A stretch of 64,000 nt of DNA from assembly GCA_026169195.1 (NCBI GenBank), contig JAPFEH010000046.1, positions 62,001-126,000 of the forward strand. Reading direction: 5' to 3'. Numbering within the stretch: position 1 is the stretch's first letter; each line of letters starts with the position of its first letter. This DNA is from Dysosmobacter sp. (GTDB taxonomy: Bacteria > Bacillota > Clostridia > Oscillospirales > Oscillospiraceae). The position numbers were made by a program, and so were the translations under genes. Positions 9,810 through 62,767 of this stretch are shown here, piece by piece. Below the pieces are notes generated by a model. It saw nothing but the letters and a program-made list of their open reading frames with translations. It did not search any database and was not told where the DNA came from.

Positions 9810-9856
9810 GGCGTCTGGCTCCTTTCTGTGGGAAAACCCGTGTTTGATTGTTTTTT

Positions 9857-10121: not shown

Positions 10122-10146
10122 CGATGGCTGCCATCCGGCAGAAAAC

Positions 10147-10398: not shown

Positions 10399-10797
10399 TT
10401 ATGATTCCAAGGCTTTCTTTAAGTCCGAAATAAATCGTGTTTGCTGTCTCGTTAAGTAGGGTTTCATGAACGGTCTCATAAACCATTTTTTGGGAAAGAT
10501 CGTTTCTGTGAAGCTTACGGTTGTGCCGGCTCCTTCAGAAGTGAAAATACCGACCCAATGACCCGTTATATTCCTGTTTTCCATATCAAACTCCCATCGT
10601 TTATATGGATCTGCAGCCGTAACGGTAAATGTAGTGGCGTATCCTTCTTTTGTATACTCAATAAATTGTTTGTCATGGATCGTTTCTGTTTTGCTCAAAT
10701 CGCTTCGCCATGTACTGTATTGATCCACTGCTGAAACAATCTCCCAAACTTGTTCAACATCATGGTTGATGAATTCTTTTATATTGGAAGTTACCAT
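10399..10797 (-). CDS. SRPBCC (START/Bet v1-like) family protein
   Basis: The 132-residue protein has the Bet v1-like layout: NIKEFINHDVEQVWEIVSAVDQYSTWRSDLSKTE (first strand and helix with the Trp-x-Ser/Asp turn), central strands with EFDMENRNITGHWVGIF, and a long C-terminal helix. Such proteins bind hydrophobic ligands in a deep cavity; no ligand can be assigned. ATG 10797 has an AGG about ten bases upstream; a TTG at 10815 is possible. It lies between feoB and the Cys-rich feo gene on the same strand, but a large hairpin (10871-10906) separates it from feoB. It is richer in AT than feoB. Confidence 0.75.
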   Translation of the reverse strand: MVTSNIKEFINHDVEQVWEIVSAVDQYSTWRSDLSKTETIHDKQFIEYTKEGYATTFTVTAADPYKRWEFDMENRNITGHWVGIFTSEGAGTTVSFTETIFPKKWFMRPFMKPYLTRQQTRFISDLKKALES

Positions 10798-10870
10798 GTC
10801 GGCACGACCTTTCAAATCGGATGAGGGGATGAACTGTTCAGCTGACGGGATCGTCTTGAAGGAATGTTCC

Positions 10871-10906
10871 GTGAGCGCGCAGCGCGTTTTACTGCTGCGC
10901 GCTCAC
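10871..10906 (-). terminator. GC-rich hairpin after feoB
   Basis: A 13-bp stem (GTGAGCGCGCAGC and complement) with a 10-base loop lies about 20 bases beyond the feoB stop. There is no T-run, so termination efficiency is uncertain. Confidence 0.45.
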
Positions 10907-10926
10907 AGATTGCCCGGTCTGCTTGA

Positions 10927-12933: not shown

Positions 12934-13160
12934 CGTGCCTTCACCTCCACGGAGATGTTCCGGGCGTCCTCTTTCCGCAGAGACAATGCATACCCCCGGA
13001 CACGCAATTCCAGAGGATCTCCCAGCGGCGCGGTTTTTTCTATGCGGACAGCGGTTTTGGGGATCAGCCCCATATCCAGCAGCCGGCAGCGAAGGGCACC
13101 TTCGCCGCCTACTGCGGTGATCACGGCCTCTTGACCGATGGGTAATGTATCTAATGTCAT
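12930..13160 (-). CDS. feoA: Ferrous iron transport protein A
   Basis: The 76-residue SH3-like protein starts LDTLPIGQEAVITAVGGEGALRCRLLDMGLIPKTAVRIEKTAPLGDPLELRVRGYALSLR in pattern, the full FeoA domain with the RLLDMG and RGYALSLR signatures. FeoA binds FeoB and is required for Fe(II) uptake. ATG 13160 follows AGGAGG with 8-base spacing. It is the first gene of the feo unit; the promoter and palindromic elements lie directly upstream. Confidence 0.95.
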   Translation of the reverse strand: MTLDTLPIGQEAVITAVGGEGALRCRLLDMGLIPKTAVRIEKTAPLGDPLELRVRGYALSLRKEDARNISVEVKAR

Positions 13161-13177
13161 GTTGATAGCCTCCTGAA

Positions 13178-13217
13178 GTTAGCTTCTTCTAACTATGAAG
13201 AGTTTACCACGGCTAAC
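13178..13217 (-). promoter_or_regulatory. Candidate DtxR/IdeR-like operator before feoA
   Basis: GTTAGC-TTCTT-CTAAC at 13178-13193 is an imperfect inverted repeat around the predicted start of transcription, and a further GGCTAAC half-site (13211-13217) lies between -35 and -10. GTTAG/CTAAC half-sites resemble DtxR-family iron boxes. This is a pattern match only. Confidence 0.45.
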
Positions 13218-13229
13218 TCCATCCGTCAA
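13201..13229 (-). promoter_or_regulatory. Promoter of feoAB
   Basis: On the minus strand TTGACG and TAAACT are 17 bases apart; the region overlaps the candidate iron box. Confidence 0.65.
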
Positions 13230-13400
13230 ACACAAATCTGGCAGAAAGTTGTAGAAAAAACGCAGACCATATTGTATAAGACAGAGAGAAGGGGAATTTC
13301 CCTGTTTCGGTGGGCGGTATCGTTTCTCCCGCAGAAAAGGAAAGGGGAGCTGCGCCGTCAGGAAATGAATGTGCCGGAGGAAATCCGGTACGATGGCATG
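13230..13400. other. Intergenic, no gene seen
   Basis: The 358-bp gap between feoA and the Sel1 gene holds the feo promoter at one end and the Sel1 terminator at the other. The part between (13230-13400) contains only short frames without support. Confidence 0.5.
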
Positions 13401-13441
13401 AAAAAACCGCCCCCTGATGCGGCCGAACCGGCATCAGGGGG
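13401..13441 (-). terminator. Terminator of the Sel1-repeat gene
   Basis: An 11-bp stem (arms 13410-13420 and 13431-13441, CCCCCTGATGC and complement) is followed on the minus strand by CGG and TTTTTT. Confidence 0.85.
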
Positions 13442-13518
13442 TGGTGATGAACGATGATCGTTTCTGCTTATGCAGAAATCGAGGGGACAGGGCTGAAATC
13501 TGCAAGAACGGCAGGGGG

Positions 13519-15861
13519 TCACTTGCGTCCAAAGAGTGTTTTGAAAAAGGATTTTTTGCTTTTTTGCAAACGGGAAACGGCTTCTGCCGCGCCGGAAAAG
13601 CCGGCTTCCTCTGCTGACCGGTACAGCGCCAGTGCCCGCTGAAGATCCTGCGGCGTTCCGGTTCCGTGCTCGCAGCACCAGGCCAGATGATAGCAGGCGC
13701 GGGGATCATGCTGCTCTGCGGATTTTTCATACCATCGGACGGCCGCGCTCCAATCCTGTGCCACGCCAACGCCAATCTCATAAAGGTAACCCAGATTGCA
13801 GGCGGCGGTTCGATCGCCGCTTTCCGCGGCCTGCTGATACAAAGCTGCCGCTTTTTCAGGGTCTTTCGGAATCCCGTAGCCAAATTCGAAGCAGACCCCC
13901 AGATTGCACTGGGCACGGGGATAGCCTGCATCAGCAGATTTTTCATACCAGTATGCAGCCTGCCCCCAATCCTGCGGCAGCCCGCGTCCGGACTCATAAA
14001 GATAACCGAGATTACACTGCCCTGCGGGATCGCCCTGTTCCGCCGCCTGCCGGTACAGAGCCGCTGCTTTTTCCAGATCCTGCTCCACGCCTTCACCGTA
14101 CTCGTAGCAGACGCCAAGATTGCATTGAGCAGGGGGGTAACCGGCTTCTGCGGACTGTGTATACCAACGAACGGCATCGGTCCAGCTTTGCGGGATACCG
14201 CAGCCCCGCTTGCTGCAAACGCCCATGCAAAACATCCCGCGGGGATCGTGCTGCTCCGCCGCCTTCCGGTACCACCGGACTGCGGTCTCCGGGTCTGCTG
14301 CTACGCCTTTTCCGTACTCGTAACACCATGCGAGGTTGCATTGGGCGCGGGGCATTCCCTGTTCTGCGGCAGCGCGGTACCAGCGGACGGCCTCTTCCCA
14401 GCTTTGCGGCACGCCCGCTCCGGTCTCATAAAGATAGCCGAGATTGCACTGGCCTGCCGGATTTCCCCGTTCCGCCGCGCAGCGGTAGAGTGAGGCTGCG
14501 GTTTCCATGCTTTTGGCGACACCTTCGCCCCGCTCATAGCAAACGCCCAGATCACACATGGCCGCCGCGGAGCCTGCGTCAGCCGCCTTTTGATACCACC
14601 GGCAGGCTTCCGCGGCATCCTGCGCCACCCCAAGACCGTAGTCATAGGCGTGAGCCACGCAGAAAAGCCCTCTGGAGTCGCCCTGCTCTGCGGCGCGGCG
14701 GTACCAGAAAAGGGCGTCCTTATAGCTCTGCTCCACGCCCTTGCCGTGCTCATAACACCATGCGAGGTTGCATTGGGCGCGGGATGCCCCCTGTTCGGCT
14801 GCGATCCGGTACCACCGGACGGCTTCCTCCCAGCTTTGTTCAACACCCTCTCCGCTTTCATATAAAAAACCAAGGCAGCAGGCAGCGTCTTCCTCACCCT
14901 GCTCCGCTGCTTTCCGATACCATTCCGCAGCCGCGGTCTGGTCCTGCGGAACACCGCGGCCCCGTTCGCAGCATAATCCCATGCAAAGCTGCCCGCGGGG
15001 ATAGCCCTGCTGCGCGGCTGCCAGATAGAGCTCCGCTGCGGCACGGTCATCCTGCACGACCCCTTTTCCGTATTCGTAGCACCATGCCAGATTGCATTGG
15101 GCGCGGGCCAGTCCCTGCTCTGCGGCGGCGCGGTACCAACGGACGGCCTCCTCCCAGCTTTGCTCCACGCCTTGACCGGATTCATAGCAAAAACCAAGGC
15201 AGCACTGGCCGGAGGCGTTGTTTCCCTCGGCGCCTGCGCGGTACCATTTGACGGCCTGCTCCAGATCCTGCGGCACACCGGTTCCGAATTCCAGACAGCG
15301 GCCCAGCTCCGTTTGCGCAGAGGGATAGCCCAGCCAAGCGGCGGAGCGGTACCATTTCGCCGCTTCTTCCGGGTCGGCCTCCACGCCGTCTCCCCGCTGA
15401 TAGCATTCGCCCAGCAAAAACTGCGCACGTGGGAAGCCCTGTGCGGCTCCTTTGCGGAAGCATTCCAGTGCTTTGGAACTGTCTTTTTCCACACCAATCC
15501 CGCAGAGGAAGCAGTAACCCAGATTGGTCAGTGCAGGTATGTATTCCTGCGCAGCCGCACCGGCATACAGCAGCGCGGCCTGTCGGGGATCTGCCTGCAC
15601 GCCGACGCCTGCTTCCAGACACCAGCCAAGATTGGTCTGTCCCAAGGGGTCCCCCAGAGCTGCCGCCTGCTGGTAACAGGCCAGCGCGTCTGTCTCCCGC
15701 CGGTCCTCCACGGCCTGATCGCCCAGACAGACCCAGTTGGAGGCGGTCAGTTCCTCGCTGCTCAGGGAATAAAAAAACGTTCCGCCGCAGCGCGGGCAGG
15801 TGTCCGGTTCTGTCTCGGCTGCAAACCCGCAGTCGGGGTTTTCACAGCAATAATAGTCCAT
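13519..15861 (-). CDS. Large Sel1-like repeat protein with N-terminal zinc ribbon
   Basis: The 780-residue protein starts with a zinc-ribbon-like segment (C5 C6, C11, then CPRC at 22-25) and then carries about 19 full Sel1-like repeats of 36 residues from roughly residue 58 to 745, plus a partial last unit. The repeat consensus is WYRAAAEQG-x3-AQCNLGxCYExGxGVxQD-x2-EA. Sel1 repeats form alpha-solenoids that scaffold protein-protein contacts; no partner can be named. Blocks of three or four repeats are nearly identical, indicating recent internal duplication. Most units carry two fixed cysteines (QCNLGxC), unusually many for a solenoid. There is no signal peptide. It starts 12 bp after the TtcA-like gene, likely in one transcript. 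Confidence 0.92.
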   Translation of the reverse strand: MDYYCCENPDCGFAAETEPDTCPRCGGTFFYSLSSEELTASNWVCLGDQAVEDRRETDALACYQQAAALGDPLGQTNLGWCLEAGVGVQADPRQAALLYAGAAAQEYIPALTNLGYCFLCGIGVEKDSSKALECFRKGAAQGFPRAQFLLGECYQRGDGVEADPEEAAKWYRSAAWLGYPSAQTELGRCLEFGTGVPQDLEQAVKWYRAGAEGNNASGQCCLGFCYESGQGVEQSWEEAVRWYRAAAEQGLARAQCNLAWCYEYGKGVVQDDRAAAELYLAAAQQGYPRGQLCMGLCCERGRGVPQDQTAAAEWYRKAAEQGEEDAACCLGFLYESGEGVEQSWEEAVRWYRIAAEQGASRAQCNLAWCYEHGKGVEQSYKDALFWYRRAAEQGDSRGLFCVAHAYDYGLGVAQDAAEACRWYQKAADAGSAAAMCDLGVCYERGEGVAKSMETAASLYRCAAERGNPAGQCNLGYLYETGAGVPQSWEEAVRWYRAAAEQGMPRAQCNLAWCYEYGKGVAADPETAVRWYRKAAEQHDPRGMFCMGVCSKRGCGIPQSWTDAVRWYTQSAEAGYPPAQCNLGVCYEYGEGVEQDLEKAAALYRQAAEQGDPAGQCNLGYLYESGRGLPQDWGQAAYWYEKSADAGYPRAQCNLGVCFEFGYGIPKDPEKAAALYQQAAESGDRTAACNLGYLYEIGVGVAQDWSAAVRWYEKSAEQHDPRACYHLAWCCEHGTGTPQDLQRALALYRSAEEAGFSGAAEAVSRLQKSKKSFFKTLFGRK

Positions 15862-24751: not shown

Positions 24752-25549
24752 TCAGCAGTTTTCCAGTGCGCCGCTCAGATTCAGAAGGGCCTCCAGTACG
24801 CCGCCGCCTACCGCCAGAGCTTTATCACTGGCACAGCTGCAGTGGGCGGCATCACAGCGGGGATCGATGTCGCCGGCTTTCATGTTTTTGTGAACCGGAG
24901 TTCCGTCTGCAAGAATTCCGCGCAGGATTCCGTCCAGTGTACAGACCATGGGGACGCCATTGACATCGGCGGCGATGTCTCCCTGCCGAACCTGTGTTCC
25001 GATTTCCAGTTTTTGGTGGAAAATCCCGTCGGCAGGGGCGCGCAGCACCCGTTCGCCGGAAAAACCGCCGATAAGACCGGGAATGCCGGTATTCGGCAAG
25101 GCAGCCCCATGGTAGAGGACTCTGCCCAGATAATGGCCCCGCATGGTTTCTACGACCGCGTGGCAGTCGGAACCGGCGGAGAATCCGGGACCGACGCCGA
25201 TGACCACCGGTGCGTCCGTGATGCGGGTCCCCAGATTTTCTTTTGCCAAAATGGCATCTACGACACCGTCAGGACGCAGGGTGTGCAGACATGCGCCCTC
25301 CGGATCGGCCAATACGGGAATGCAGCCTTCCGCCAACACATTCAGCGCCTGCTCCGGCGTTTGGGCGTATTTGGCGGTCACATCCTCCACGGTTGCTTCC
25401 CCGTGCACAATGGCTTGGGAAAAACAGACCGTTCTGCGGATGGCGGTAGGCTTGGGGAGATCGGTCATGACGACCTGCATCCGGGCACGATGCAGCCGCA
25501 GAGCGATTCCGGTGGCGATGTCACCGGCGCCTCGAATCACAATCAGCAT
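24752..25549 (-). CDS. yqeB: Selenium-dependent molybdenum hydroxylase system protein YqeB
   Basis: The 265-residue protein has an N-terminal Rossmann-like start (VIRGAGDIATGIALRLHRARMQVVMTDLP), then VIGVGPGFSAGSDCHAVVETMRGHYLGRV and a biotin/lipoyl-like beta barrel (RVLRAPADGIFHQKLEIGTQVRQGD). This matches the YqeB/EF2563 family (TIGR03309) of uncharacterised proteins tied to selenium-containing xanthine dehydrogenase-type enzymes. It may process or deliver the labile selenium ligand (inference). The ATG lies within the end of yqeC (7-bp overlap), so they are coupled. Confidence 0.9.
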   Translation of the reverse strand: MLIVIRGAGDIATGIALRLHRARMQVVMTDLPKPTAIRRTVCFSQAIVHGEATVEDVTAKYAQTPEQALNVLAEGCIPVLADPEGACLHTLRPDGVVDAILAKENLGTRITDAPVVIGVGPGFSAGSDCHAVVETMRGHYLGRVLYHGAALPNTGIPGLIGGFSGERVLRAPADGIFHQKLEIGTQVRQGDIAADVNGVPMVCTLDGILRGILADGTPVHKNMKAGDIDPRCDAAHCSCASDKALAVGGGVLEALLNLSGALENC

Positions 25550-26208
25550 ATCCAATATGTTCCTTTCTGTAAACTTCCAGCCACGACCGGCGTTTCCAAC
25601 AGGGAGGCGAAATGCTTTGCAGAATGGAAATGGCACGGGCTGTCGATCTGATTGAGAAAAACGCGGTCATGCAGGGCCTCGGTCCGCAAAACTGCGGCCT
25701 CCCGCTCCGGAGTGACGGGGTCTGAAAAGGCTGCATTTGCCAGCGCGGCATACCGTTCCGGCCGGTGAGCGGCGTCTTGGATGGCTTGCCCGAATCCGGA
25801 GGCCCCCACCACACAAATGGTCTGCCGGGCAGCGGGCGGGATCACCGGTTCGTGAGGCGCATGGGCTTTCATGGGGCGGCCTGCCGAACCGTCCGCTTCC
25901 ACCAGAACATAGTCGAACCATTCTGCAAGGAGCGGCAAGGGCAGCGGCGGAGACGTCAGCTTCCCGCCTGCATCGGGCACCGGCTGTCCGGCACACAGCA
26001 GGCGGCACTGCTGCCGCAGCTGTTCCAGCGCTTCCGCGCTTTCCGCGCATGGAATTCCGGTAAACGGGAAAAATTTAGTTGTTGTACAAAGCAGGACCCG
26101 ATGGTCCTGTGCCAGTTCTTCTCCCAGTGTCCGCAGCAGTGTTGTCTTTCCGCCGCCGCCAATGACCGCTGTGATTCCCGGGCGGATCTCCAGCAATTCT
26201 GCCAGCAT
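25543..26208 (-). CDS. yqeC: Selenium-dependent hydroxylase accessory protein YqeC
   Basis: The 221-residue P-loop protein carries GGGGKTT (about residues 15-21), then TTTKFFP, DYVLVEADGSAGRPMKAHAPHEPVIP (the family's highly conserved metal/nucleotide segment) and VVGASGFG. This is the YqeC family (TIGR03172). Its ATPase/GTPase-like fold suggests energy-dependent cofactor insertion, but the reaction is unknown. ATG 26208 follows AAGGAG. It is the first gene of the selenium transcript running yqeC-yqeB-GNAT-selD-yedF-aminotransferase-DUF3343-DUF6472-Nudix. Confidence 0.9.
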   Translation of the reverse strand: MLAELLEIRPGITAVIGGGGKTTLLRTLGEELAQDHRVLLCTTTKFFPFTGIPCAESAEALEQLRQQCRLLCAGQPVPDAGGKLTSPPLPLPLLAEWFDYVLVEADGSAGRPMKAHAPHEPVIPPAARQTICVVGASGFGQAIQDAAHRPERYAALANAAFSDPVTPEREAAVLRTEALHDRVFLNQIDSPCHFHSAKHFASLLETPVVAGSLQKGTYWIC

Positions 26209-26370
26209 GGTCTGCGCACTCCTTTCGTTGTCTTTTTCATAGAATAACACCGGAGGCTTGAGCCGTCAAGACTTGCCGGCTGAAAGGCCGCTGTTCCCAA
26301 TTCCGACAGCTGCAGGGTTTTACATATCCGGCTGCGGAGAAGATCTGCCCCGATTTTTTTTAAAAATGAC

Positions 26371-45583: not shown

Positions 45584-45589
45584 GAGGAA

Positions 45590-45820
45590 CAATGACTTGG
45601 ATGGGAAGAAAACCCGGATATTCCGCCTGAAGAGAGCCGGCGGCTGGTGTGAGCCGGTGGGGGTGCCGTGGGATACTGGTCCCGGAGTCTTTCGCCTGAA
45701 CCAAAAGTAGGGCGGAACGGCTGGCCCCGTTATCGGCTGTGAGGGCTGTAACCAAACAGCTGAAGCAGGGTGGTACCGCGTTTCCAACGCCCCTGACCGG
45801 ACATCGGTCAGGGGCGTTTT
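45590..45820 (+). promoter_or_regulatory. T-box riboswitch leader of leuS
   Basis: The T-box sequence AGGGTGGTACCGCG is present at 45767-45780, followed by a 14-bp terminator stem (arms 45786-45799 and 45805-45818, AACGCCCCTGACCG and complement) with a T-run. Uncharged leucyl-tRNA is expected to pair with the T-box and block that terminator, raising leuS expression. The upstream part folds in several stems; CTG at 45676-45678 is a possible leucine specifier, not proved. Confidence 0.9.
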
Positions 45821-53898: not shown

Positions 53899-55146
53899 TC
53901 AGCCGTAGGCTTCGTCCAGCAGGGTGATTCCGTCGATCCGCAGATCGAAGTAGGGAGCGGAACGATACTCGGACTCGTGGAAGTAACCGTCGGCAATGAC
54001 CTCGGTGTCGGGGGTGTAATTGGCGTCGGAATCCACATCAGCCTGATAGCTGTCCATTGCCTTGCCGTCTACGGTGAAGGCAGCGGTATCGAAGACATGC
54101 AGAGAGCCGTCTTCCAGCTTGGCGGTAGCTTCAGCGATGGCCTCGGCGGTGCCCTCGGCAACGGCCTTCTCATTCAGGTCCGTGAGCACCACGGAGCCGG
54201 TAGCCAGAGTGCCGGTCCAGTCGGCGTCAATGGCTTCACCCTTCATAGCGGCAGAAATGGCGTATTCATAATAGGGCGTCCAGTCGATGCGGGAAGAGAC
54301 GAGATAGGTGTTGGGGCAGGCGGATTCCGTAGAGCCATTGTAGGAAACATTGGGAACGCCGGCCAGCTCACAGGCAGTCGGAGCACCCATGGAGTCCGCA
54401 TGCTGGCTGATGATCTTGCAGCCGTTGTTGATGAGTTTCTGTGCGCCTTCCTTCTCGGCCGTCTCATCGTACCAGGAGCCGGTGAAGGTGACTTCCATGG
54501 TAGCAGTGGGGCAGACGGAACGGGCGCCCAGGAAGAAGGAGGTATAGCCGGAAACCACCTCAGCGTAAGTAAAGGCGCCGACATAACCGATCTTGGCTTC
54601 CTCCGCGGAGAATTCGCCGGCAGCGATCATCTCGTTGAGCTTCATACCGGCGGCGATACCAGCCAGATAGCGGCCCTCATAGATGGAGGCGAAGGCGTTG
54701 TGGTAGTTATCCAGACCCTCTGTGTGAGCCTTGACGCCGGTGGAATGGCAGAACTGGACATCAGGGAACTCCTTGGCTGCCTGAATCATATAGTCCTCAT
54801 GACCGAAGCTGTCTGCGAAGATGATGTTGCAGCCATCGTCAGCCAGTTCGGCGGCGGTGTCATAGCACTCCTGTCCCTCGGGAACATTGGTCTTGAATAC
54901 ATAGTTGGTGATGCCCAGATTTTCGCAGGCAGCCTTGGCGCCGTTGATGAAATTCAGGTCATAGGTGGAGTTTTCGTCGTGCAGGAAAATGAAACCGACC
55001 TTGATGTCAGATGCGGGATCCGCTGCGGGCTCCTGTGTGTCAGCGGGCTTCTCGGCATCGGCGGGAGCCTCATCTTTCTTTCCGCCGCAGGCGGCCAGAC
55101 TCAAAGACAGGACCAAAGCGAGAAGCAGTGCAAGGAACTTCTTCAT
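53899..55146 (-). CDS. BMP-family (Med/PnrA-like) substrate-binding lipoprotein
   Basis: The 415-residue lipoprotein has MKKFLALLLALVLSLSLAAC (lipobox LAAC, Cys about 20) and a Asp/Glu/Pro-rich linker, then the BMP (basic membrane protein) fold: IKVGFIFLHDENSTYDLNFINGAKAAC, FADSFGHEDYMIQAAKEFPDVQFCHSTG, RYLAGIAAGMKL and AKIGYVGAFTYAEVVSGYTSFFLGARSV. BMP proteins bind nucleosides/purines for ABC import. The cognate permease and ATPase are not in the window. It lies next to arcC, so a purine ligand is attractive but only inferred. ATG 55146 follows AAGGAGG. Confidence 0.9.
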   Translation of the reverse strand: MKKFLALLLALVLSLSLAACGGKKDEAPADAEKPADTQEPAADPASDIKVGFIFLHDENSTYDLNFINGAKAACENLGITNYVFKTNVPEGQECYDTAAELADDGCNIIFADSFGHEDYMIQAAKEFPDVQFCHSTGVKAHTEGLDNYHNAFASIYEGRYLAGIAAGMKLNEMIAAGEFSAEEAKIGYVGAFTYAEVVSGYTSFFLGARSVCPTATMEVTFTGSWYDETAEKEGAQKLINNGCKIISQHADSMGAPTACELAGVPNVSYNGSTESACPNTYLVSSRIDWTPYYEYAISAAMKGEAIDADWTGTLATGSVVLTDLNEKAVAEGTAEAIAEATAKLEDGSLHVFDTAAFTVDGKAMDSYQADVDSDANYTPDTEVIADGYFHESEYRSAPYFDLRIDGITLLDEAYG

Positions 55147-55204
55147 TCTGTTTTCCTCCTTCAAAAAATAAAATTAGGCCATGGAATGACCTTCTTCTAA
55201 TGTC

Positions 55205-55233
55205 ATCATACAAGGTTGACCCTGAAAATTCAA
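55205..55233 (-). promoter_or_regulatory. Promoter of the BMP-protein gene
   Basis: Minus-strand TTGAAT and TATGAT are 17 bases apart, 59 bases before the ATG. The -10 is the same as that of the ygeY promoter. Confidence 0.65.
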
Positions 55234-55327
55234 CTGGAATTTTACATTTTTGTAATAAAATTCAATGGAAATTCAGGTTTCTTACTTACGTAATTTATCA
55301 AAACGCACGAAAGAGAAAATAAACAAC

Positions 55328-55358
55328 AAAAAGGGGAGTGGTATTACCACTCCCCTTT
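55328..55358 (-). terminator. Terminator of the ygeY-ygeW-arcC transcript
   Basis: A 13-bp stem (AAAGGGGAGTGGT and complement) is followed on the minus strand by T residues, about 30 bases after the arcC stop. Confidence 0.85.
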
Positions 55359-55389
55359 GTAAAAACAAACAGGTCGACCTTTTGCGGAT

Positions 55390-56331
55390 TTACAGGGTGA
55401 TCGAAGTTCCGGTTTTCCCGGAAATCCCGTCTCTGGCTTTTTCCAGCAGAGTAATGAGTGCTGAACGTCCGGGCTTGCTTTCGGCGAATTGTACGGCTGC
55501 CTGCACCTTGGGCAGCATGGAGCCGGGGGCGAATTGCCCCTCTGCCATATAGCTCCGGGCCTGCTCGGGCGTCAGGGTGTCCAGCCAGCTTTGATTCGGC
55601 TTACCGAAGTTGATGGCGACCTTTTCCACGGCGGTCAGAATCACCAGACAGTCGGCATCCAGCTGCTGGGCCAGCACACAGGAGGCAAAGTCCTTGTCAA
55701 CCACAGCCGCAGCGCCTTTGAGGTGATGCCTCTCTGTGGCGAATACGGGAATCCCGCCGCCGCCGCAGGCAATGACCACCAATCCGGCATCCACCATATC
55801 GCGGATGGATTCGATCTCCACAATAGATTGGGGACGGGGAGAGGCCACCACACGGCGGTATCCGCGGCCGGCGTCCTCAATCACCTGATATCCGCGCTCT
55901 GCAACCATCTTGTCAGCCTCAGCCTTGGTCATAAAGGAGCCGATGGGCTTGGTGGGATTCAGAAAGGCGGGATCGTCCGGATCTACCTGCACCTGCGTCA
56001 GCACGGTGGAGACGCCTTTGTGAATACCGCGGTCCAGCAATTCTTCCCGAAGGGAGTTTTGCAGGTCATAACCGATATAGCCCTGACTCATGGCAACACA
56101 TACAGATAAAGGACAGGGGATATATTTTTCCGGGTCGGAACGGGTCAGTTCAGCCATGGCGGTCTGGATCATCCCCACCTGAGGTCCGTTGCCATGGGCG
56201 ATGACGACCTCATGGCCTGCTTCAATCAAGTCGGCGATGGCCTTGGCGGTTTCCCTGACGGCGGTCATCTGTTCGGGAAGATTATTGCCCAAGGCGTTGC
56301 CGCCCAAGGCAATGACGATACGTTTACCCAT
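55390..56331 (-). CDS. arcC: Carbamate kinase
   Basis: The enzyme transfers phosphate from carbamoyl phosphate to ADP, giving ATP, ammonia and CO2. The 313-residue protein shows VIALGGNALGNN, VIAHGNGPQVGMI, CVAMSQGYIGYDLQ, KPIGSFMTKAEAD, ACGGGGIPV and DKDFASCVLAQQLDAD, LTAVEKVAINFGKPNQ: the full carbamate-kinase pattern. As the last gene of the unit after ygeW it would harvest energy from the carbamoyl phosphate made there. A weak hairpin before it (56396-56431) may lower its expression. Confidence 0.95.
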   Translation of the reverse strand: MGKRIVIALGGNALGNNLPEQMTAVRETAKAIADLIEAGHEVVIAHGNGPQVGMIQTAMAELTRSDPEKYIPCPLSVCVAMSQGYIGYDLQNSLREELLDRGIHKGVSTVLTQVQVDPDDPAFLNPTKPIGSFMTKAEADKMVAERGYQVIEDAGRGYRRVVASPRPQSIVEIESIRDMVDAGLVVIACGGGGIPVFATERHHLKGAAAVVDKDFASCVLAQQLDADCLVILTAVEKVAINFGKPNQSWLDTLTPEQARSYMAEGQFAPGSMLPKVQAAVQFAESKPGRSALITLLEKARDGISGKTGTSITL

Positions 56332-56395
56332 GATGAAATACCTCGCAGATTTGTAGTGAGTGGAAAAATGTGCAGATGGTTTCTATAAAGAATGG

Positions 56396-56431
56396 AAAAT
56401 CCGCCTGAGACGCAGAACACATATCAGGCGG
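56396..56431 (-). terminator. Weak hairpin between ygeW and arcC
   Basis: CCGCCTGA and its complement (56401-56408, 56424-56431) flank a 15-base loop and are followed on the minus strand by ATTTTC. Partial termination or a processing site is possible. Confidence 0.4.
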
Positions 56432-56466
56432 ACGATCCATTTCAGCGTAAATTGTCGGTGGCTGGA

Positions 56467-57666
56467 TTATTTCGCAAACTCGCGCTTGGCGGCACGCTCC
56501 TCCAGTGCTTTCAGCGTAGCCTGCGGATCCTTGCATTTGGCAAGGAAAATCATAGCGGCGATGATATAGGGCTTGAAGGAAGCCTCTTTATACAAGGGGG
56601 TGCGGTAACGGTCAAATACGGAAGCATCCACTTCGCCGCTTTCACAGGAAACACCAGTGATATCTGCGGGCAGGCAGTGCAGGTACAAGGCCTTGCCATC
56701 CTTGGTCTTGGCCATCATCTCTTCCGTGCAGGCCCAGTCCTTGTGCTGGGCGTTCTGCGCCAGCAGCTCCTTTTCCAGAGCGTTGATGCCATCGGAATCT
56801 CCCTTGGCATAAAGGTCGGTGCGCTTTTCCATGGCGGCGAAAGGAGCCCAGCTCTTGGGATAGACGATATCGGCATCCTGAAATGCCGCTTCCATGGAGT
56901 TGGTCTTGGTGAAGGAACCGCCGGAGGCGGCAGCGTTCTTTCTGGCGACCTCTTCCACCTCAGGCATGACCTCATAGCCTTCGGGATGGGCCAGCACCAC
57001 GTCCATGCCGAACCGGGTCATCAGGCCGATGACGCCCTGAGGAACAGAAAGGGGCTTGCCGTAGGAAGGGGAATAGGCCCAAGTCATGGCAACCTTCTTG
57101 CCCTTCAGGTTCTCCACGCCGCCGAACTCATGGATGATGTGCAGCATATCCGCCATACACTGGGTAGGATGGTCAATGTCGCACTGCAGGTTGACCAGAG
57201 TGGGCTTCTGCTCCAGAACGCCGTTCTGATTGCCCTCCGTCACAGCATCTACGACCTCGTGCATGTATTTGTTGCCCTTGCCGATATACATATCGTCCCG
57301 GATGCCGATGACATCAGCCATGAAGGAGATCATGTTGGCAGTTTCACGGACGGTCTCACCATGGGCGATCTGGCTTTTTCCCTCGTCCAGATCCTGAACC
57401 TCCAGACCCAGCAGATTGCAGGCGGAGGCAAAAGAGAACCGGGTACGGGTGGAGTTGTCCCGGAACAGGGAAATGCCAAGACCGGATTCGAAAATTTTCG
57501 TAGAGATGTTATTTTCCCGCATATAGCGCAGGGCATCCGCCACGGTGAAGACGGCTTCGATCTCGTCATCTGTCTTTTCCCAAGTCAGGAAAAAATCGCC
57601 GTTGTACATTTCCTTGAAATTCAGGGCATTGAGTTTGTCAATATACATCTGCAAAGTTTTATCCAT
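56467..57666 (-). CDS. ygeW: Knotted carbamoyltransferase YgeW
   Basis: YgeW belongs to the ornithine/aspartate carbamoyltransferase superfamily; its substrate is not firmly known, and it acts in purine/ureide breakdown neighbourhoods. The 399-residue protein has the carbamoyl-phosphate loop FRDNSTRTRFSFASA (STRTR), GKSQIAHGETVRETA, HPTQCMADMLHI, and HCLPADITG. It lacks the ornithine-type SMG signature and has the longer YgeW middle region. AAAGGAGAAC precedes the ATG. It is the middle gene between ygeY (52 bp) and arcC (135 bp). Confidence 0.93.
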   Translation of the reverse strand: MDKTLQMYIDKLNALNFKEMYNGDFFLTWEKTDDEIEAVFTVADALRYMRENNISTKIFESGLGISLFRDNSTRTRFSFASACNLLGLEVQDLDEGKSQIAHGETVRETANMISFMADVIGIRDDMYIGKGNKYMHEVVDAVTEGNQNGVLEQKPTLVNLQCDIDHPTQCMADMLHIIHEFGGVENLKGKKVAMTWAYSPSYGKPLSVPQGVIGLMTRFGMDVVLAHPEGYEVMPEVEEVARKNAAASGGSFTKTNSMEAAFQDADIVYPKSWAPFAAMEKRTDLYAKGDSDGINALEKELLAQNAQHKDWACTEEMMAKTKDGKALYLHCLPADITGVSCESGEVDASVFDRYRTPLYKEASFKPYIIAAMIFLAKCKDPQATLKALEERAAKREFAK

Positions 57667-57718
57667 TGTTTCGTTCTCCTTTATCTCTGAATGGTATCCG
57701 TATCAGGCGCTTCGGGTA

Positions 57719-59131
57719 TTACTGGATGTTGTTGCTGGTCAGGCTCTGGCGGAATTCCGTTGCATCTTCCGTTTTGTTTTCCGGCTTATACAGTCCCGGA
57801 ACCGCGGCGTACAGTGCGGCACAGGTGACCAGATCCTGTTTCCAAGTGATCTCGTTGGGTGCATGGGCCTGAGATTCGGCGCCGGGGCCAAAGCCTACGC
57901 AGGGGATGCCGTAACGTCCCTGAATGGACACGCAGTTGGTGGAGAAGGTCCATTTATCGGTCAGAGGACGGCCTTCGCGCAGGTGCATGGCATCCTTTTT
58001 CGGGTCGGCGTCGGCGTGGCCGATGCGCTTGTCACCCCACAGAGCGTGGTGGGCATCCACCAGAGCCTGCACATGAGCGGCGCTTTCCTTGTTGATCCAA
58101 GTGGGGAAGAAGCACTCTGTTTCATAGACGGTGCCGGTCCATGCGGGCCGGTCATACATGTACATACTGACCTTCACATCATCGCGATATTTCTGGACAG
58201 AGGGCAGCTCTTCGATTTCTTTCAGGCAGGAATCCCATGTCTCTCCGGCGGTCATGCGGCGGTCGATGGAGATGGAGCAGCTGTCTGCCACGGCGCAGCG
58301 GGAGGGAGAGGTGTAAAAGATCTGGGAGGTGGTGCAGGTGCCGCGGCCGAGGAACTGCGCGTCCTCGTAATGTTGGGGATTGAACTCGGGATTCAGCATT
58401 TTGACAAGTCCCTTGACCTTGTTGGAGGGACCGTCCCCGTTCTCGTTCAGAGCACGGACGTCCTGAAGGATGTCTGCCATCTTATAGATGGCGTTGTCGC
58501 CGCGTTCGGGAGCGGAACCATGGCAGGAGATTCCCTTCACGTCCACACGGATCTCCATGCGGCCCCGATGACCGCGGTAGATGCCGCCGTCGGTGGGTTC
58601 GGTGGAGATGACAAACTCGATTTTGCTGCGGGCGTCCTCGGGGCCGTGGAAGTACTGATTGACGATGTACTGCCAGCACATGCCGTCGCAGTCCTCTTCC
58701 TGAACGGAGCCGACTACCATGATTTTGTAGCCATCGGGGATCAAGCCCAGATCCTTCATGATCTTGGCACCGTAGACGGCGGAGGCCATGCCGCCTTCCT
58801 GATCGGAACCGCCGCGGCCGAAAATGATGTCGTCGGTTTCATATCCGGTATAGGGATCGGCTTCCCAGTTGCTGATGTTGCCGATGCCGACGGTGTCGAT
58901 GTGGGAATCAATGGCGATGATCTTTTCACCTTCGCCCATCCATCCGATCACATTGCCCAGACCGTCGATCTCCACTTTGTCGTAACCAAGCTTTTCCATT
59001 TCGGCCTTGATGCACATGACGACCTCCTTTTCCTCGCAGCTTTCGCTGGGGTGGGAGATCATATCCCGCAGGAACCGGGACATGTCAGCTTGATAGCCTC
59101 TGGCTGCCTGTTTGATCGCTTCAAAATCCAT
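57719..59131 (-). CDS. ygeY: YgeY-family M20 metallopeptidase/amidohydrolase
   Basis: The 470-residue M20 enzyme has [11 protein letters not shown] (first metal ligand), [31 protein letters not shown] (catalytic Glu pair), [15 protein letters not shown] and [22 protein letters not shown] (dimerisation domain). YgeY-type enzymes (TIGR03526, selenium-linked hydrolase) probably cleave an amide of a small nitrogen compound. ATG 59131 is chosen because GGAGG lies 8 bases upstream; the TTG in frame overlaps it. First gene of the minus-strand unit; the promoter and operator lie upstream. Confidence 0.93.
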
Positions 59132-59161
59132 ACCGTCATCCTCCGTCAAATATGATGTATA

Positions 59162-59187
59162 AGGGGTAAATCACACTCTCTACCCCT
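59162..59187. promoter_or_regulatory. Candidate operator (inverted repeat) at the ygeY promoter
   Basis: AGGGGTA at 59162-59168 is repeated in inverted form (TACCCCT) at 59181-59187, 12 bases apart, immediately downstream of the minus-strand -10 element. The size fits a dimeric repressor site. The co-located YheO-type regulator is the obvious candidate; not shown. Confidence 0.5.
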
Positions 59188-59215
59188 ATCATAGCACAAG
59201 AATTCCAGTTGTCAA
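59188..59215 (-). promoter_or_regulatory. Promoter of ygeY-ygeW-arcC
   Basis: Minus-strand TTGACA and TATGAT are 16 bases apart, adjacent to the inverted repeat. Confidence 0.75.
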
Positions 59216-59255
59216 ACAAAAAATTAGAAAACCAAAAAAACTTTTTGAAAAACGG

Positions 59256-59283
59256 TTGATTTCTATAAAAAATATGGTATGAT
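59256..59283 (+). promoter_or_regulatory. Promoter of the regulator and PLP-enzyme genes
   Basis: TTGATT and TATGAT are 16 bases apart, mirroring the divergent ygeY promoter. Confidence 0.6.
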
Positions 59284-59306
59284 AGGGATGGTAGATTAGA
59301 ACGTTT

Positions 59307-59987
59307 TTGAAAAAACCGGAAGAAAAGGAGGAACTGCCTACGGAAAGCGGAAAGTTAGAAATGCTGCGGCAGGTGGCAAACGGCATCGCAGCGCAGTTTG
59401 GGACCAACTGCGAGGTGGTGGTCCATGACCTGAGCCGTAATCCGGACCACTCCATTGTGCATATAGTGAACGGTCATGTCTCCGGCCGTAAAGTGGGGGA
59501 CGGGGCTTCCAATGTGGTCATGGAACAGCTGGAGACCAATGATCCGGAGCCGCGGGACCATCTGTGCTATCTGATGAAAACGCCGGATGGGAAGATCTTG
59601 AAATCTTCCACGGTTTATATCCGGAACGGGAAGGGGAAGGTCTCTGCCATTCTGGCGATCAATTATGACATTTCCAAATTGATGATGGTGGAAAGCGCCG
59701 TGCGGGAGCTGATCTCCACGCCGGAGCCTCAGCAGTCGGAGCCGGAAAAGATCGTGAACATCAACGATCTGCTGGAGGATCTGATCCAGCAGTCGGTTGC
59801 GCTGGTGGGAAAGCCGGTGGCTTTGATGAATAAGGATGACAAAGTGAAAGCCATCCAGTTCTTGAGTCAGAACGGTGCGTTTCTGGTCACCAAGTCCGGT
59901 GATAAGATTGCAAAATACTTTGGAATTTCCAAGTATACATTATATTCTTATATTGATATCAAACAGCAGGAGGGAAAAGCCACATGA
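59307..59987 (+). CDS. YheO-type PAS/HTH transcriptional regulator
   Basis: The roughly 215-residue protein has a PAS-like sensing domain (EMLRQVANGIAAQFGTNCEVVVHDLSRNPDHSIVHIVNGHVSGRKVGD, then DHLCYLMKTPDGKILKSSTVYIRNGKGKVSAILAINYDIS) and a C-terminal HTH (KAIQFLSQNGAFLVTKSGDKIAKYFGISKYTLYSYID). These belong to the YheO/DauR-like family, which regulates amino-acid or related catabolism. The start is uncertain: the only strong ribosome site (AAGGAGG at 59325-59331) points to ACG 59340 or the far ATG 59361, while TTG 59307 lacks one. The stop overlaps the next ATG. Confidence 0.85.
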   Translation: MKKPEEKEELPTESGKLEMLRQVANGIAAQFGTNCEVVVHDLSRNPDHSIVHIVNGHVSGRKVGDGASNVVMEQLETNDPEPRDHLCYLMKTPDGKILKSSTVYIRNGKGKVSAILAINYDISKLMMVESAVRELISTPEPQQSEPEKIVNINDLLEDLIQQSVALVGKPVALMNKDDKVKAIQFLSQNGAFLVTKSGDKIAKYFGISKYTLYSYIDIKQQEGKAT

Positions 59988-61459
59988 TTGATTTGACTAT
60001 CCATCAAGAGGGATTGGCGCACAATCTGAAAAAAGCAAAGGAAAACGGCATTATCATCCCTACCATCCGGCAGATGCAGCATCCTGAGACGATTCCGGAA
60101 AAGATTCAGGAACGGCTGAAAACCGTCGGGCTGTGGGATGTGGACCCGCTGAACCTGTTCCGCATTACATGGAAAAACGAGCCGAAGGAATCCGGCGGAC
60201 TGTTTCAGGCGGTCCCCAATTACATCGAACTGCCCTCTGTGCTGACAGGCGTGCCCTGCCGCATCATCGCCATGGTGGGCAAGTGGTTCCCCACCGGCTG
60301 CCACAAGGTGGGGGCGTCGTTTGGCTGTCTGGCGCCCAGACTGGTAACGGGACAGTTTGACGTTGACAAGCACAAGGCCGTGTGGCCCTCCACCGGAAAC
60401 TACTGCCGCGGAGGCGCGTTCAACTCCCGTCTGCTGGGGGCGCAGGGAGTGGCGATCCTGCCGGCGGAGATGAGCCGGGAACGGTTCGACTGGCTCCATG
60501 AGATCGGGGCGGAAGTCATTGCGACGCCGGGATGCGAATCGAATGTCAAAGAGATCTTTGATAAGACCAATGAATTGAAGCAGGACCCTCTGTACATGAT
60601 TTTCAATCAGTTTGAGGAGATGGGCAATCCCCTTTGGCATTATAACGTGACCGGCAATGCGCTGGCTGATGTATTTGAAGCGGTCAAACGCCCCGGAGAC
60701 CGCTTTGCCGCCGCCGCCTTCACGTCCGGTTCTGCCGGAACCATGTCCACCGGAGACCGGCTCAAGGAGCTTTATCCGCACTTGAAGCTGGGCGTAGGCG
60801 AGGCGCTCCAGTGCCCCACCATTTTGAACAACGGCTTTGGCGGACACCGGATCGAAGGGATCGGCGATAAACATATTCCGTGGATCCATAATGTGAAAAA
60901 TACCGATATGGCCATTGCCATTGACGATGAGGATTCCCAGCGGCTGCTGCGGCTGTTCAATACGCCGGAAGGAAAGGACTATTTGCTGCATACGCTGAAG
61001 CTGGAGCCTGAATTGGTGGAAAAACTCAGCTGGCTGGGAATTTCGGGCATCGCCAACGTGCTCTGCTGCATCAAGATGGCGAAATACTACGAACTGACAG
61101 AGCGGGACGTGGTTGGAACGGTGCTGACAGATTCCGCTTCCATGTACGGCAGCCGCATTGCGGAGCTGAATGAACAGTACGGAGCATACAACATGAACGA
61201 GGCGGTGCTGGACCATCACCTGCATATGCTCGGACTGAAAACGGACAGCATGATGGAGCTGACCTATATGGATCGCAAACGGGTCCACAACCTGAAATAT
61301 TATACTTGGGTGGAGCAGCAGGGAAAGACTTCCGAGGAGCTGAACGCCCTGTGGTATGACACGGAAGGCACATGGGATGCCGTTCACGCGCAGGCTGAGG
61401 AACTGGATGAGCTCATCAATGCCTTTAATGAGGAAACCGGCGTACTGAAAAATCTGTAA
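59984..61459 (+). CDS. Fold-type-II PLP-dependent enzyme of unassigned activity
   Basis: The 491-residue protein belongs to the tryptophan-synthase-beta/cysteine-synthase superfamily. It has the Schiff-base lysine at about K108 in PTGCHKVGASFG, the asparagine loop in STGNYCRGGA, and the phosphate-binding segment TSGSAGTMSTGDR, then a distinct C-terminal region (about 380-490) with DSASMYGSRIAELNEQYG. It is longer than E. coli YgeX (about 400 residues) and lacks its typical sequence, so it is not a simple diaminopropionate ammonia-lyase. Homologues are often annotated only as a PLP-dependent protein subunit beta. It follows the regulator with a 4-bp overlap. Confidence 0.85.
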   Translation: MIDLTIHQEGLAHNLKKAKENGIIIPTIRQMQHPETIPEKIQERLKTVGLWDVDPLNLFRITWKNEPKESGGLFQAVPNYIELPSVLTGVPCRIIAMVGKWFPTGCHKVGASFGCLAPRLVTGQFDVDKHKAVWPSTGNYCRGGAFNSRLLGAQGVAILPAEMSRERFDWLHEIGAEVIATPGCESNVKEIFDKTNELKQDPLYMIFNQFEEMGNPLWHYNVTGNALADVFEAVKRPGDRFAAAAFTSGSAGTMSTGDRLKELYPHLKLGVGEALQCPTILNNGFGGHRIEGIGDKHIPWIHNVKNTDMAIAIDDEDSQRLLRLFNTPEGKDYLLHTLKLEPELVEKLSWLGISGIANVLCCIKMAKYYELTERDVVGTVLTDSASMYGSRIAELNEQYGAYNMNEAVLDHHLHMLGLKTDSMMELTYMDRKRVHNLKYYTWVEQQGKTSEELNALWYDTEGTWDAVHAQAEELDELINAFNEETGVLKNL

Positions 61460-61525
61460 AGGAAATTCACATCACAGGAAAACGCGGGGTGGACGTGGGT
61501 CTGCCCTGCGGGATCGGGGGACTGC

Positions 61526-62767
61526 ATGAAACATGTTCTGTATGGCAGGTGTGTCAGGTGCGGAAAGACTTATGAAGCTGTACCGGATCTGACCACTTGT
61601 GAATGCGGCGGCATTCTGGAGATCACGTATGATTATGACTACATCAAAACGCGGTTGACCAAGGAAACGCTGGCAGGCAGGTCCGACCGGACCATGTGGC
61701 GGTATCGGGAACTGCTTCCGGTGGAAGAAACCACAGAGCTGCCGCCTTTGCGGGTGGGAGGAAGCCCCTTGTATGAGGAGCCGCGTCTGGCAAAGCATCT
61801 GGGATTGAAAAAACTCTGGGTCAAGGATGACGGACAGAATCCAACCGCATCCTTGAAGGACCGGGCAAGCGCCATGGCAGTGGCCAAGGCGCGGGAGGCG
61901 GGGGCACGGGTGATCGCCTGCTCCTCCACCGGAAATGCAGCCAGCTCTCTGGCGGGCAATGCGGCGGCGGCAGGGCTGTCAACGTATATTTTCGTGCCTT
62001 CCCGTGCGCCGAAGGGCAAGGTGGCGCAGCTGATGACCTTCGGCGCCACAGTGATTTCCGTTCAGGGAAATTATGAGGAGACCTTTGCGCTCAGCAAGGC
62101 GGCCATTGACCGGTGGGGCTGGTACAACCGGAATGCTGCCATCAATCCCTATCTGTCGGAAGGGAAAAAGACGGTTTCTTTGGAAATTATGGAACAGCTC
62201 CGCTGGGAGGTTCCGGATTACATTGCCATCAGCGTGGGGGATGGATGCACCATTGCCGGATTGTGGAAGGGCTTGAAGGACTTCTATGCAATTGGACTGA
62301 TCGACTGGCTTCCCCGCCTGATCTCAGTGCAGGCAGAGGGGTGCTGCCCGCTGAACCGGGCCATTGCGGAGGATCGTCCGTGGTATCCCATGGAGGAAAA
62401 TACGCTGGCGGATTCCATTGCCGTGGGGGTGCCCAGAAATGCGGACAAAGCGCTGATGGCAATTCGGGAGTCCAACGGGCTGGTGGTCAACGTTTCCGAT
62501 GAAGAGATCATGGCAGCCCAGAAGCTGCTGGGCATGACCTGCGGCGTGTTCGGCGAGCCGGCAGGCGTTGCGGGTACGGCGGGCGTCAGAAAGCTGTGTG
62601 AGCAGGGCGTTCTGGGCGGGCAGGATACGGTGGTCAGTGTAGTGACAGGCAACGGCCTGAAGGATGTGGCAAATGCCATTAGGGCCTGCGGCGAGCCGAT
62701 CTCCATCCCAAGCGATATGGAGCTGCTGATCAAAGCCTTTCAGGAAAAGGGCATTGCGGCGGACTGA
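61526..62767 (+). CDS. Threonine-synthase-family PLP enzyme
   Basis: The 413-residue fold-type-II enzyme has an N-terminal zinc-ribbon-like part (C9-x2-C12, C25-x-C27), the lysine in QNPTASLKDRAS (about K111), SSTGNAASSLAGNAAAAG, ISVGDGCTIAGLWKG, and VVSVVTGNGLKDV near the end. Threonine synthase turns phosphohomoserine into threonine. The position directly after another PLP enzyme in a purine-degradation locus suggests a lyase or replacement role in that pathway instead; either remains possible. The two genes are 66 bp apart. Confidence 0.85.
   Translation: MKHVLYGRCVRCGKTYEAVPDLTTCECGGILEITYDYDYIKTRLTKETLAGRSDRTMWRYRELLPVEETTELPPLRVGGSPLYEEPRLAKHLGLKKLWVKDDGQNPTASLKDRASAMAVAKAREAGARVIACSSTGNAASSLAGNAAAAGLSTYIFVPSRAPKGKVAQLMTFGATVISVQGNYEETFALSKAAIDRWGWYNRNAAINPYLSEGKKTVSLEIMEQLRWEVPDYIAISVGDGCTIAGLWKGLKDFYAIGLIDWLPRLISVQAEGCCPLNRAIAEDRPWYPMEENTLADSIAVGVPRNADKALMAIRESNGLVVNVSDEEIMAAQKLLGMTCGVFGEPAGVAGTAGVRKLCEQGVLGGQDTVVSVVTGNGLKDVANAIRACGEPISIPSDMELLIKAFQEKGIAAD

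What the first reader, a model, noticed from the sequence alone, without database searches (positions are those of the whole stretch)
53899..62767. Probable purine/urate-type fermentation module with a divergent, regulator-controlled core
The sequence shows a BMP-type (nucleoside-like) binding lipoprotein, arcC, ygeW and ygeY on the minus strand, and a YheO-type regulator plus two PLP enzymes on the plus strand, divided by facing promoters. YgeW and YgeY families and carbamate kinase are known from anaerobic purine and urate breakdown loci in E. coli and gut anaerobes. Combined with the two selenium loci, the organism plausibly uses a selenium-dependent hydroxylase and ferments the products to carbamoyl phosphate and ATP. 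The exact pathway and substrate are inference.
Basis: partly seen in the sequence, partly recalled or inferred. Interest (0 to 1): 0.85.

Follow-up and report, generated by a model that had tools for sequence, protein, structure and literature searches.

The report
Urate-fermentation genes with alternative last enzymes
A bacterium related to gut Oscillospiraceae carries a regulated set of genes for fermenting uric acid without oxygen, and beside it lies a pair of uncharacterised vitamin-B6 enzymes that, across its relatives, seem to stand in for the last enzyme of the known pathway.

Summary
Observation confirmed: bmp, arcC, ygeW and ygeY on the minus strand face a YheO-type regulator and two PALP-fold PLP enzymes (PALP1, PALP2). 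Interpretation supported by gene content: the same genome encodes XdhABC, a selenium-dependent xanthine dehydrogenase, YgfK, SsnA, HyuA and, 1.7 kb before the window, YgeX. This is the gene set of the reductive uric acid pathway published in 2025, scattered over the assembly.

Beyond that stands the PLP pair. Neither enzyme is YgeX, cysteine synthase or the housekeeping threonine synthase. In 50 genomes with PALP1 beside ygeW, SsnA is found in 48, PALP2 in 47, but YgeX in only 11; all 39 genomes without YgeX have PALP2, and the three without PALP2 have YgeX. I propose that PALP2, probably with PALP1, can replace YgeX in breaking down 2,3-diaminopropionate. The reaction is inferred. A published survey scored YgeX by the Pfam domain PF00291, which PALP1 and PALP2 share, so it would not separate them. 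In the window's genome YgeX and the pair coexist, so here the pair is an addition. Ordinary as a urate locus; a new variant at its last step.

The parts
53899..55164 (-). BMP-family (PnrA-like) substrate-binding lipoprotein; the next genes on its far side are pncB and a pantothenate kinase, not ABC transporter partners
   Evidence: PF02608 97.8 bits; neighbours; ABC partners beside bmp in many relatives
55390..56331 (-). arcC, carbamate kinase (carbamoyl phosphate + ADP to ATP)
   Evidence: TIGR00746 374.3 bits, cut-off 358.25
56467..57666 (-). ygeW, knotted carbamoyltransferase
   Evidence: TIGR03316 803.1 bits, cut-off 500
57719..59149 (-). ygeY, M20-type hydrolase; the likely start is an internal ATG six codons further in
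   Evidence: PRK13004 607.3 bits, cut-off 321
59188..59283 (.). Divergent promoter region: minus-strand promoter (-35 59210-59215, -10 59188-59193), A/T-rich element between, possible plus-strand promoter 59256-59283
   Evidence: minus-strand site 11-12 of 12 in 27 of 35 regions, 0 of 175 shuffles; plus-strand site not clearly above shuffles
59307..59987 (+). YheO-type transcription regulator (PAS_6 + HTH_22); true start not settled
   Evidence: PF08348 132.9 bits, PF13309 70.8 bits; ORF family in 47 of 81 loci
59984..61459 (+). PALP1: 491-aa PLP enzyme, distant from cysteine synthase and cystathionine beta-synthase; overlaps the regulator by 4 bases
   Evidence: cysK 81.8 bits, cut-off 350.95; best PDB profile hits CBS/CysK, E about 1e-19; K108, S136-T137-G138-N139, T382-D383-S384 and F210 invariant, Q209 at least 90%, in 43 sequences
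61526..62767 (+). PALP2: 413-aa threonine-synthase-like PLP enzyme with four invariant N-terminal cysteines
   Evidence: PRK08197 314 bits, cut-off 303; TIGR00260 220.4, cut-off 167.1; C9, C12, C25, C27, K111, A205, L210, D239 invariant in 41 sequences
24752..26250 (-). yqeB and yqeC, selenium-dependent molybdenum cofactor accessory genes
   Evidence: TIGR03309 351.4 bits, TIGR03172 131.4 bits
33336..34520 (-). YedE-family putative selenium transporter
   Evidence: TIGR04112 491.7 bits, cut-off 200

Best explanation
The locus is the downstream half of the anaerobic reductive uric acid pathway. HyuA, encoded elsewhere, delivers 2,3-diureidopropionate; YgeW removes one ureido group as carbamoyl phosphate, ArcC turns that into ATP, and YgeY hydrolyses the other ureido group, leaving 2,3-diaminopropionate. 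These steps are in print for homologues and inferred here. The PLP pair PALP1-PALP2, on the facing transcript behind a YheO-type regulator, is an alternative end of the pathway. PALP2 (threonine-synthase-like, with changed residues at the positions I recall as phosphate-binding), probably with PALP1 (cysteine-synthase-like, so expected to form an aminoacrylate from a beta-substituted alanine), breaks down 2,3-diaminopropionate in place of YgeX. In this genome YgeX is also present, so the pair is an addition; in many relatives it is the only candidate found. The order of action of PALP1 and PALP2, and their product (pyruvate or serine), are not known.
For: Genome: XdhABC, Se-dependent XDH, YgfK, SsnA, HyuA, YgeX. 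SsnA and YgeW in the same 19 of 295 genomes. SsnA+ genomes without PALP1: 8 of 8 have YgeX; SsnA+ genomes lacking YgeX: 2 of 19, both with PALP1 and PALP2 in one stretch with ssnA, ygfK, hyuA, ygeY and ygeW. In the 50 genomes whose fetched locus holds PALP1 and ygeW: SsnA 48 (46 over cut-off, 2 partial), YgeX 11, PALP2 47; all 39 without YgeX have PALP2, 38 of these have SsnA, and the 3 without PALP2 have YgeX. YgeX hits separate cleanly: lowest over cut-off 490.5 bits, next 94.3. YgeX state changes at least 6 times on the PALP1 tree of 51 rows. Oscillibacter valericigenes Sjm18-20, titled a complete genome (L075, G309), has SsnA, YgeW, PALP1, PALP2 and no YgeX over the cut-off. Chemistry: PMC12507026 (parts 1-2 of 7 and passages), PMC12990295 (part 1 of 2).
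Against: No activity data. YgeX coexists with both PALP1 and PALP2 in the window's genome and in 8 of the 50, and with PALP1 alone in 3, so the pair is not a plain substitute. PALP1-PALP2 also occur with no ORF of the urate families in the fetched flanks (L104, L108, L119). In Flavonifractor and kin the pair lies beside another hyuA, apart from the urate cluster that holds YgeX. PALP1 occurs in G251 and G294, which lack SsnA, YgeW and YgeX, with no PALP2 in the 18 kb fetched. In mostly Lachnospiraceae loci PALP1 sits with serC, often serA and DUF1015, in some beside YgeX, hinting at another job. The 50 genomes were chosen by PALP1 and ygeW among the 80 best matches and are mostly MAGs, so absence of YgeX in any one may be incompleteness. 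PALP2 was not searched in the 295-genome survey.
Confidence: 0.5

Rival explanations
1. The PLP pair serves a neighbouring reaction (for example diverting diaminopropionate or a ureido amino acid to serine or another amino acid), and in genomes without YgeX the diaminopropionate step is done by an unrelated or general dehydratase.
For: PALP1 with serC, serA and DUF1015 in loci some of which also hold ygeX; coexistence with YgeX in the window genome and 8 of 50 genomes; PALP1-PALP2 away from urate families; general PALP dehydratase-like hits exist in many of the YgeX-less genomes.
Against: It does not by itself predict that all 39 YgeX-less genomes keep PALP2 while only YgeX+ genomes lack it.
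Confidence: 0.33
2. PALP1 and PALP2 are ordinary biosynthetic cysteine-synthase and threonine-synthase paralogues that happen to be co-located with the urate genes.
For: Automatic models name PALP2 threonine synthase (PRK08197 314 bits, TIGR00260 220 bits) and PALP1 hits cysteine synthase weakly.
Against: A separate long-type threonine synthase lies on C27; positions S155, R160, N188 of the Thermus enzyme are A, L, D in 41 of 41 PALP2 (their role is recalled); PALP1 is far below every cysteine synthase cut-off.
Confidence: 0.1
3. The locus as a whole serves a substrate other than urate, such as an allantoin- or hydantoin-like compound, and shares enzymes with the urate route.
For: BMP-type binding protein rather than a urate permease at the locus; the genome has a further molybdenum hydroxylase cluster.
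Against: SsnA and YgeW occur in the same 19 of 295 genomes, and stretches with ssnA, ygfK, hyuA, ygeY and ygeW together exist.
Confidence: 0.07

Closest known systems
Reductive uric acid degradation cluster of Escherichia coli (xdhD-ygfM, ygfK, ssnA, hyuA, ygeW, yqeA, ygeY, ygeX)
   Same: YgeW, YgeY, carbamate kinase, SsnA, YgfK, HyuA and YgeX all found in the genome
   Different: Genes lie on several contigs; a YheO-type regulator faces ygeY, where E. coli has the sigma-54 activator gene ygeV next to ygeW; extra PALP1-PALP2 pair; TIGR03313 (XdhD type) not reached by the two Mo subunits tested
Clostridioides difficile variant (UacX for YgfK, UacY for YgeW; PMC12507026)
   Same: Enzyme swaps within one pathway skeleton
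   Different: Here YgfK and YgeW are kept and, in relatives, the proposed swap is at the YgeX step, which that paper gives as conserved in C. difficile
Diaminopropionate ammonia-lyase YgeX (TIGR03528, PRK08206)
   Same: PALP fold family; proposed shared substrate
   Different: PALP1 and PALP2 each align with under 30 bits to the genome's own YgeX
Threonine synthase (2zsj, 6cgq, 1uim, 2d1f)
   Same: PALP2 aligns over about 340 residues, best E 2.8e-85 by profile
   Different: S155, R160, N188 (Thermus) are A, L, D in 41 of 41; separate threonine synthase present
Cysteine synthase / cystathionine beta-synthase
   Same: PALP1 shares the middle part, within residues 84-330
   Different: About 160 further C-terminal residues outside the match; scores far below any family cut-off

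Membership tests
Knotted carbamoyltransferase YgeW | TIGR03316 score over 500 bits | tested here: met
   803.1 bits
YgeY hydrolase | PRK13004 score over 321 bits | tested here: met
   607.3 bits
Carbamate kinase | TIGR00746 score over 358.25 bits | tested here: met
   374.3 bits
YheO-type regulator | PAS_6 and HTH_22 domains | tested here: met
   132.9 and 70.8 bits
Reductive urate pathway (genome level) | SsnA present | tested here: met
   TIGR03314 536 bits, cut-off 455.5
Reductive urate pathway (genome level) | YgfK (or UacX) present | tested here: met
   984-aa ORF next to ssnA; only its N-terminal 467 aa were scored: TIGR03315 positions 1-465, 678.1 bits, under the whole-protein cut-off 835.3
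Reductive urate pathway (genome level) | HyuA present | tested here: met
   TIGR02033 564.9 bits, cut-off 393.25
Reductive urate pathway (genome level) | XdhD-type urate reductase | tested here: inconclusive
   XdhABC and Se_dep_XDH TIGR03311 (1317.3 bits) present; TIGR03313 reached 399.5 and 191.1 of 1101.9 bits; the C34 hydroxylase was not scored. PMC12507026 gives C. difficile XdhD low homology to that of E. coli.
Reductive urate pathway (genome level) | YgeX present | tested here: met
   TIGR03528 630.4 bits, cut-off 532.25, at C88:59145-60341
Reductive urate pathway (genome level) | Uric acid consumed anaerobically | not testable with these tools
   no culture
Diaminopropionate ammonia-lyase (for PALP1 or PALP2) | PRK08206 score over 276 bits | tested here: not met
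   PALP2 42.4 bits; PALP1 not among hits at E 0.001
Threonine synthase (for PALP2) | Family models PRK08197 and TIGR00260 | tested here: met
   314 over 303 and 220.4 over 167.1 bits
Threonine synthase (for PALP2) | Residues S155, R160, N188 (Thermus numbering; phosphate-binding role recalled, not from a call) | tested here: not met
   A205, L210, D239 in 41 of 41 sequences
Cysteine synthase (for PALP1) | cysK or cysKM model cut-off | tested here: not met
   81.8 of 350.95 and 80.7 of 344.15 bits

The most novel reading that the evidence does not exclude
PALP1 is a beta-replacement enzyme that turns 2,3-diaminopropionate into serine or O-phosphoserine instead of eliminating both amino groups, and the carbon of urate then either enters 3-phosphoglycerate backwards through SerC and SerA (Lachnospiraceae-type loci) or is finished by PALP2; the pair would be a new, energy- or carbon-saving branch of purine fermentation.
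Probability: 0.12. Interest if true: 0.75.

Novelty: new variant of a known kind. Interest (0 to 1): 0.5.

Why it matters
Anaerobic urate breakdown by gut bacteria has been linked in print to blood urate and gout, and its enzymes were worked out only recently. If PALP2 with PALP1 replaces YgeX, then surveys that use YgeX as a marker miss many Oscillospiraceae and Ruminococcus genomes, and surveys that count any PF00291 protein as YgeX hide a second chemistry. The finding names two proteins, gives genomes in which the question is clean (no YgeX found, pair present), and makes the test a simple enzyme assay.

Tried and rejected
A shared operator between this locus and other urate genes of the genome was sought: a consensus of the element between the divergent promoters (exact in the window) has no match with fewer than 12 mismatches in the five fetched stretches that hold ssnA, hyuA, ygeX, xdhABC and the C34 cluster. 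Exact palindromes in 51 regions beside ygeY were sparse (best in 9 of 51, and that one is a run of A and T). Literature searches without a useful hit: DUF1015 with serine kinase (no paper), threonine synthase phosphate residues, diaminopropionate ammonia-lyase catalytic residues, YheO with D-amino acids (no paper). A description of the PALP pair in urate metabolism was looked for and not seen in the listings or in the papers opened; only open-licence papers are held, and the papers of Liu et al. and Kasahara et al. that these cite were not read. The in-frame stop reported in a molybdenum hydroxylase was considered as a broken gene and set aside: it lies between two ORFs that look like separate large and medium subunits (the precedent is recalled). 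That PALP2 is the only threonine synthase of the genome was rejected.
Full report
WHAT IS THERE. The window is G000:C88:62001-126000 of a 2.37 Mb, 90-contig genome. I call the two enzymes PALP1 (59984-61459) and PALP2 (61526-62767). The selenium genes in the window are YqeC/YqeB and a YedE-type transporter.

IS IT A URATE LOCUS? The rest of the genome says yes at the level of genes. SsnA is at C46:3224-4546, a 984-aa YgfK beside it (only its N-terminal 467 aa were scored), HyuA at C46:29955-31310, YgeX at C88:59145-60341, about 1.7 kb before the window. XdhC, XdhB, XdhA, a selenium-dependent xanthine dehydrogenase and a MocA-like protein lie together on C13. Li et al. 2025 (PMC12507026; parts 1 and 2 of 7 and passages read) report with E. 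coli and C. difficile enzymes that urate is reduced to yanthine, opened by YgfK, SsnA and HyuA to 2,3-diureidopropionate, and cleaved by YgeW and YgeY to 2,3-diaminopropionate, which YgeX splits to pyruvate and ammonia. Percudani (PMC12990295, part 1 of 2 read) notes that the order of the two ureido cleavages is disputed. In 295 genomes of the order, SsnA and YgeW occur in the same 19 genomes, so YgeW is a good marker of this pathway here. Which enzyme reduces urate in this genome is open: no tested Mo subunit reached the E. coli-type XdhD model.

THE PLP PAIR. PALP1 matches cysteine synthase models with 82 bits or less against cut-offs near 350; its best solved relatives are cysteine synthase and cystathionine beta-synthase, over its middle part. 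The family is highly conserved (mean column identity 82% over 43 sequences), with K108, an STGN loop and a TDS motif invariant; assigning these to PLP binding is by analogy and recalled. PALP2 passes threonine synthase models, but the genome has a separate long-type threonine synthase. At the positions of S155, R160 and N188 of Thermus threonine synthase, which I recall as phosphate-binding, 41 of 41 aligned PALP2 have A, L and D. Neither protein aligns with the genome's own YgeX beyond 30 bits.

CONTEXT ACROSS GENOMES. ORF families in these 80 plus the window (81 loci, many cut by contig ends) are: PALP2 63, ygeY 53, ygeW 51, yheO 47, arcC 41, ABC ATPases 37, bmp 31, two permeases 25 and 20, an amidohydrolase family 20, hyuA 18, ygfK 12, serC 10, DUF1015 7, serA 6, ygeX 5. 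The clusters are loose: the ATPase family took in ATPases with other neighbours (L104, L107, L122), the amidohydrolases include a guanine-deaminase-like protein, and the ygfK family seems to include NADPH-glutamate-synthase-type subunits in L053 and L056, judged by their neighbour. Only one or a few members of some families were put through a family search; the rest of the labels rest on clustering and my reading. The commonest layout is permeases-ABC-bmp-arcC-ygeW-ygeY facing yheO-PALP1-PALP2, in some loci with hyuA-ygfK-amidohydrolase beyond. Mostly Lachnospiraceae loci have PALP1 with serC, often serA and DUF1015, and in L068-L070 ygeX. Flavonifractor and kin have PALP1-PALP2 with another hyuA, apart from their urate cluster.

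YgeX AND THE PAIR. In the order survey (the same 295 genomes each time) PALP1 is in 14, YgeX in 21, SsnA in 19. Of the 19 SsnA genomes, 11 have PALP1 and 8 do not; all 8 without PALP1 have YgeX, and the only 2 without YgeX (G071, G257) have PALP1 and PALP2 in one stretch with ssnA, ygfK, hyuA, ygeY and ygeW (arcC was not detected in that of G071). PALP1 is in 3 of the 276 genomes without SsnA. PALP2 was not searched in this survey. In the 50 genomes whose locus holds both PALP1 and ygeW (all such loci among the 80), SsnA is found in 48 (46 over cut-off, 2 partial), YgeX in 11, PALP2 in 47. The 39 without YgeX all have PALP2; 38 of them have SsnA. The 3 without PALP2 all have YgeX. If the genomes were independent, the chance that all three PALP2-less genomes fall among the 11 with YgeX is 165/19600, about 0.008 (my arithmetic). 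They are not independent, but YgeX presence changes at least six times on the PALP1 tree. One YgeX-less genome, Oscillibacter valericigenes Sjm18-20, is titled a complete genome.

READING. The simplest account is that PALP2, probably with PALP1, can do the last step of the pathway. PALP1's likeness to beta-replacement enzymes fits a beta-substituted alanine such as diaminopropionate. Against it stand coexistence with YgeX in the window's genome and 8 of 50, occurrences away from urate genes, and the serC-serA linkage. Li et al. coloured YgeX in their network by PF00291; PALP1 and PALP2 also match PF00291, so that analysis would not have told them apart.

REGULATION. The ygeY-side promoter and an A/T-rich element between the two transcripts recur in relatives; the plus-strand promoter is not supported by consensus scores. 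I take the element as the likely operator of the YheO-type regulator; this is inference. It was not found in the fetched stretches with the other urate genes of this genome.

VERDICT. Observation confirmed, interpretation supported by gene content, last-step variant proposed with moderate confidence. As a urate locus it is a member of a known kind; the PLP pair makes it a variant.

Noticed in passing
L025 (G000:C34:1-18000), 7424-15686: A cluster that looks like nicotinate fermentation: hydroxymethylglutarate-dehydrogenase-like gene, FAD, Fe-S and two separate molybdenum subunits, aconitase-like large and small subunits and a B12-type mutase. Named by eye and recall from the translations, not by a family search.
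   Followed up: partly
window 53899-55164: The BMP lipoprotein has no ABC ATPase or permease gene next to it, unlike in many related loci. Whether they lie elsewhere in the genome was not searched.
   Followed up: partly
L062, L064, L066, L068, L069, L070, L074, L100, L117, L054: PALP1 with serC (10 of 81 loci), serA in 6, DUF1015 in 7; in mostly Lachnospiraceae genomes.
   Followed up: partly
L115, L120, L124, L125, L126, L127: Flavonifractor and kin: PALP1-PALP2-small ORF-hyuA-mocA-like module without ygeW or ygeY in the flanks; a xanthine-dehydrogenase-like ORF in L115 and L120, yqeB-like ORF in L124-L127 (labels by clustering and eye; hyuA of L115). Substrate unknown.
   Followed up: partly
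L122:10001-12585: PALP1 without PALP2 in the fetched stretch, directly followed by an alanine racemase family gene (PF01168, PF00842).
   Followed up: no
L107:7020-12739: PALP1-PALP2 shortly downstream of an ethanolamine ammonia-lyase large-subunit gene (PF06751).
   Followed up: no
L102:3137-4414: A guanine-deaminase-like gene (TIGR02967, 351.6 bits, under the cut-off 375.4) between bmp and arcC, fitting purine use.
   Followed up: partly
L020:4918-6300: A sodium/amino acid carrier (TIGR00835, 463.9 bits) diverges from ssnA-ygfK in the window's genome.
   Followed up: no
window 45589-45797: T-box leader (RF00230, 106.4 bits) in front of an ORF at 45854 that looks like a leucyl-tRNA synthetase by eye.
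   Followed up: no
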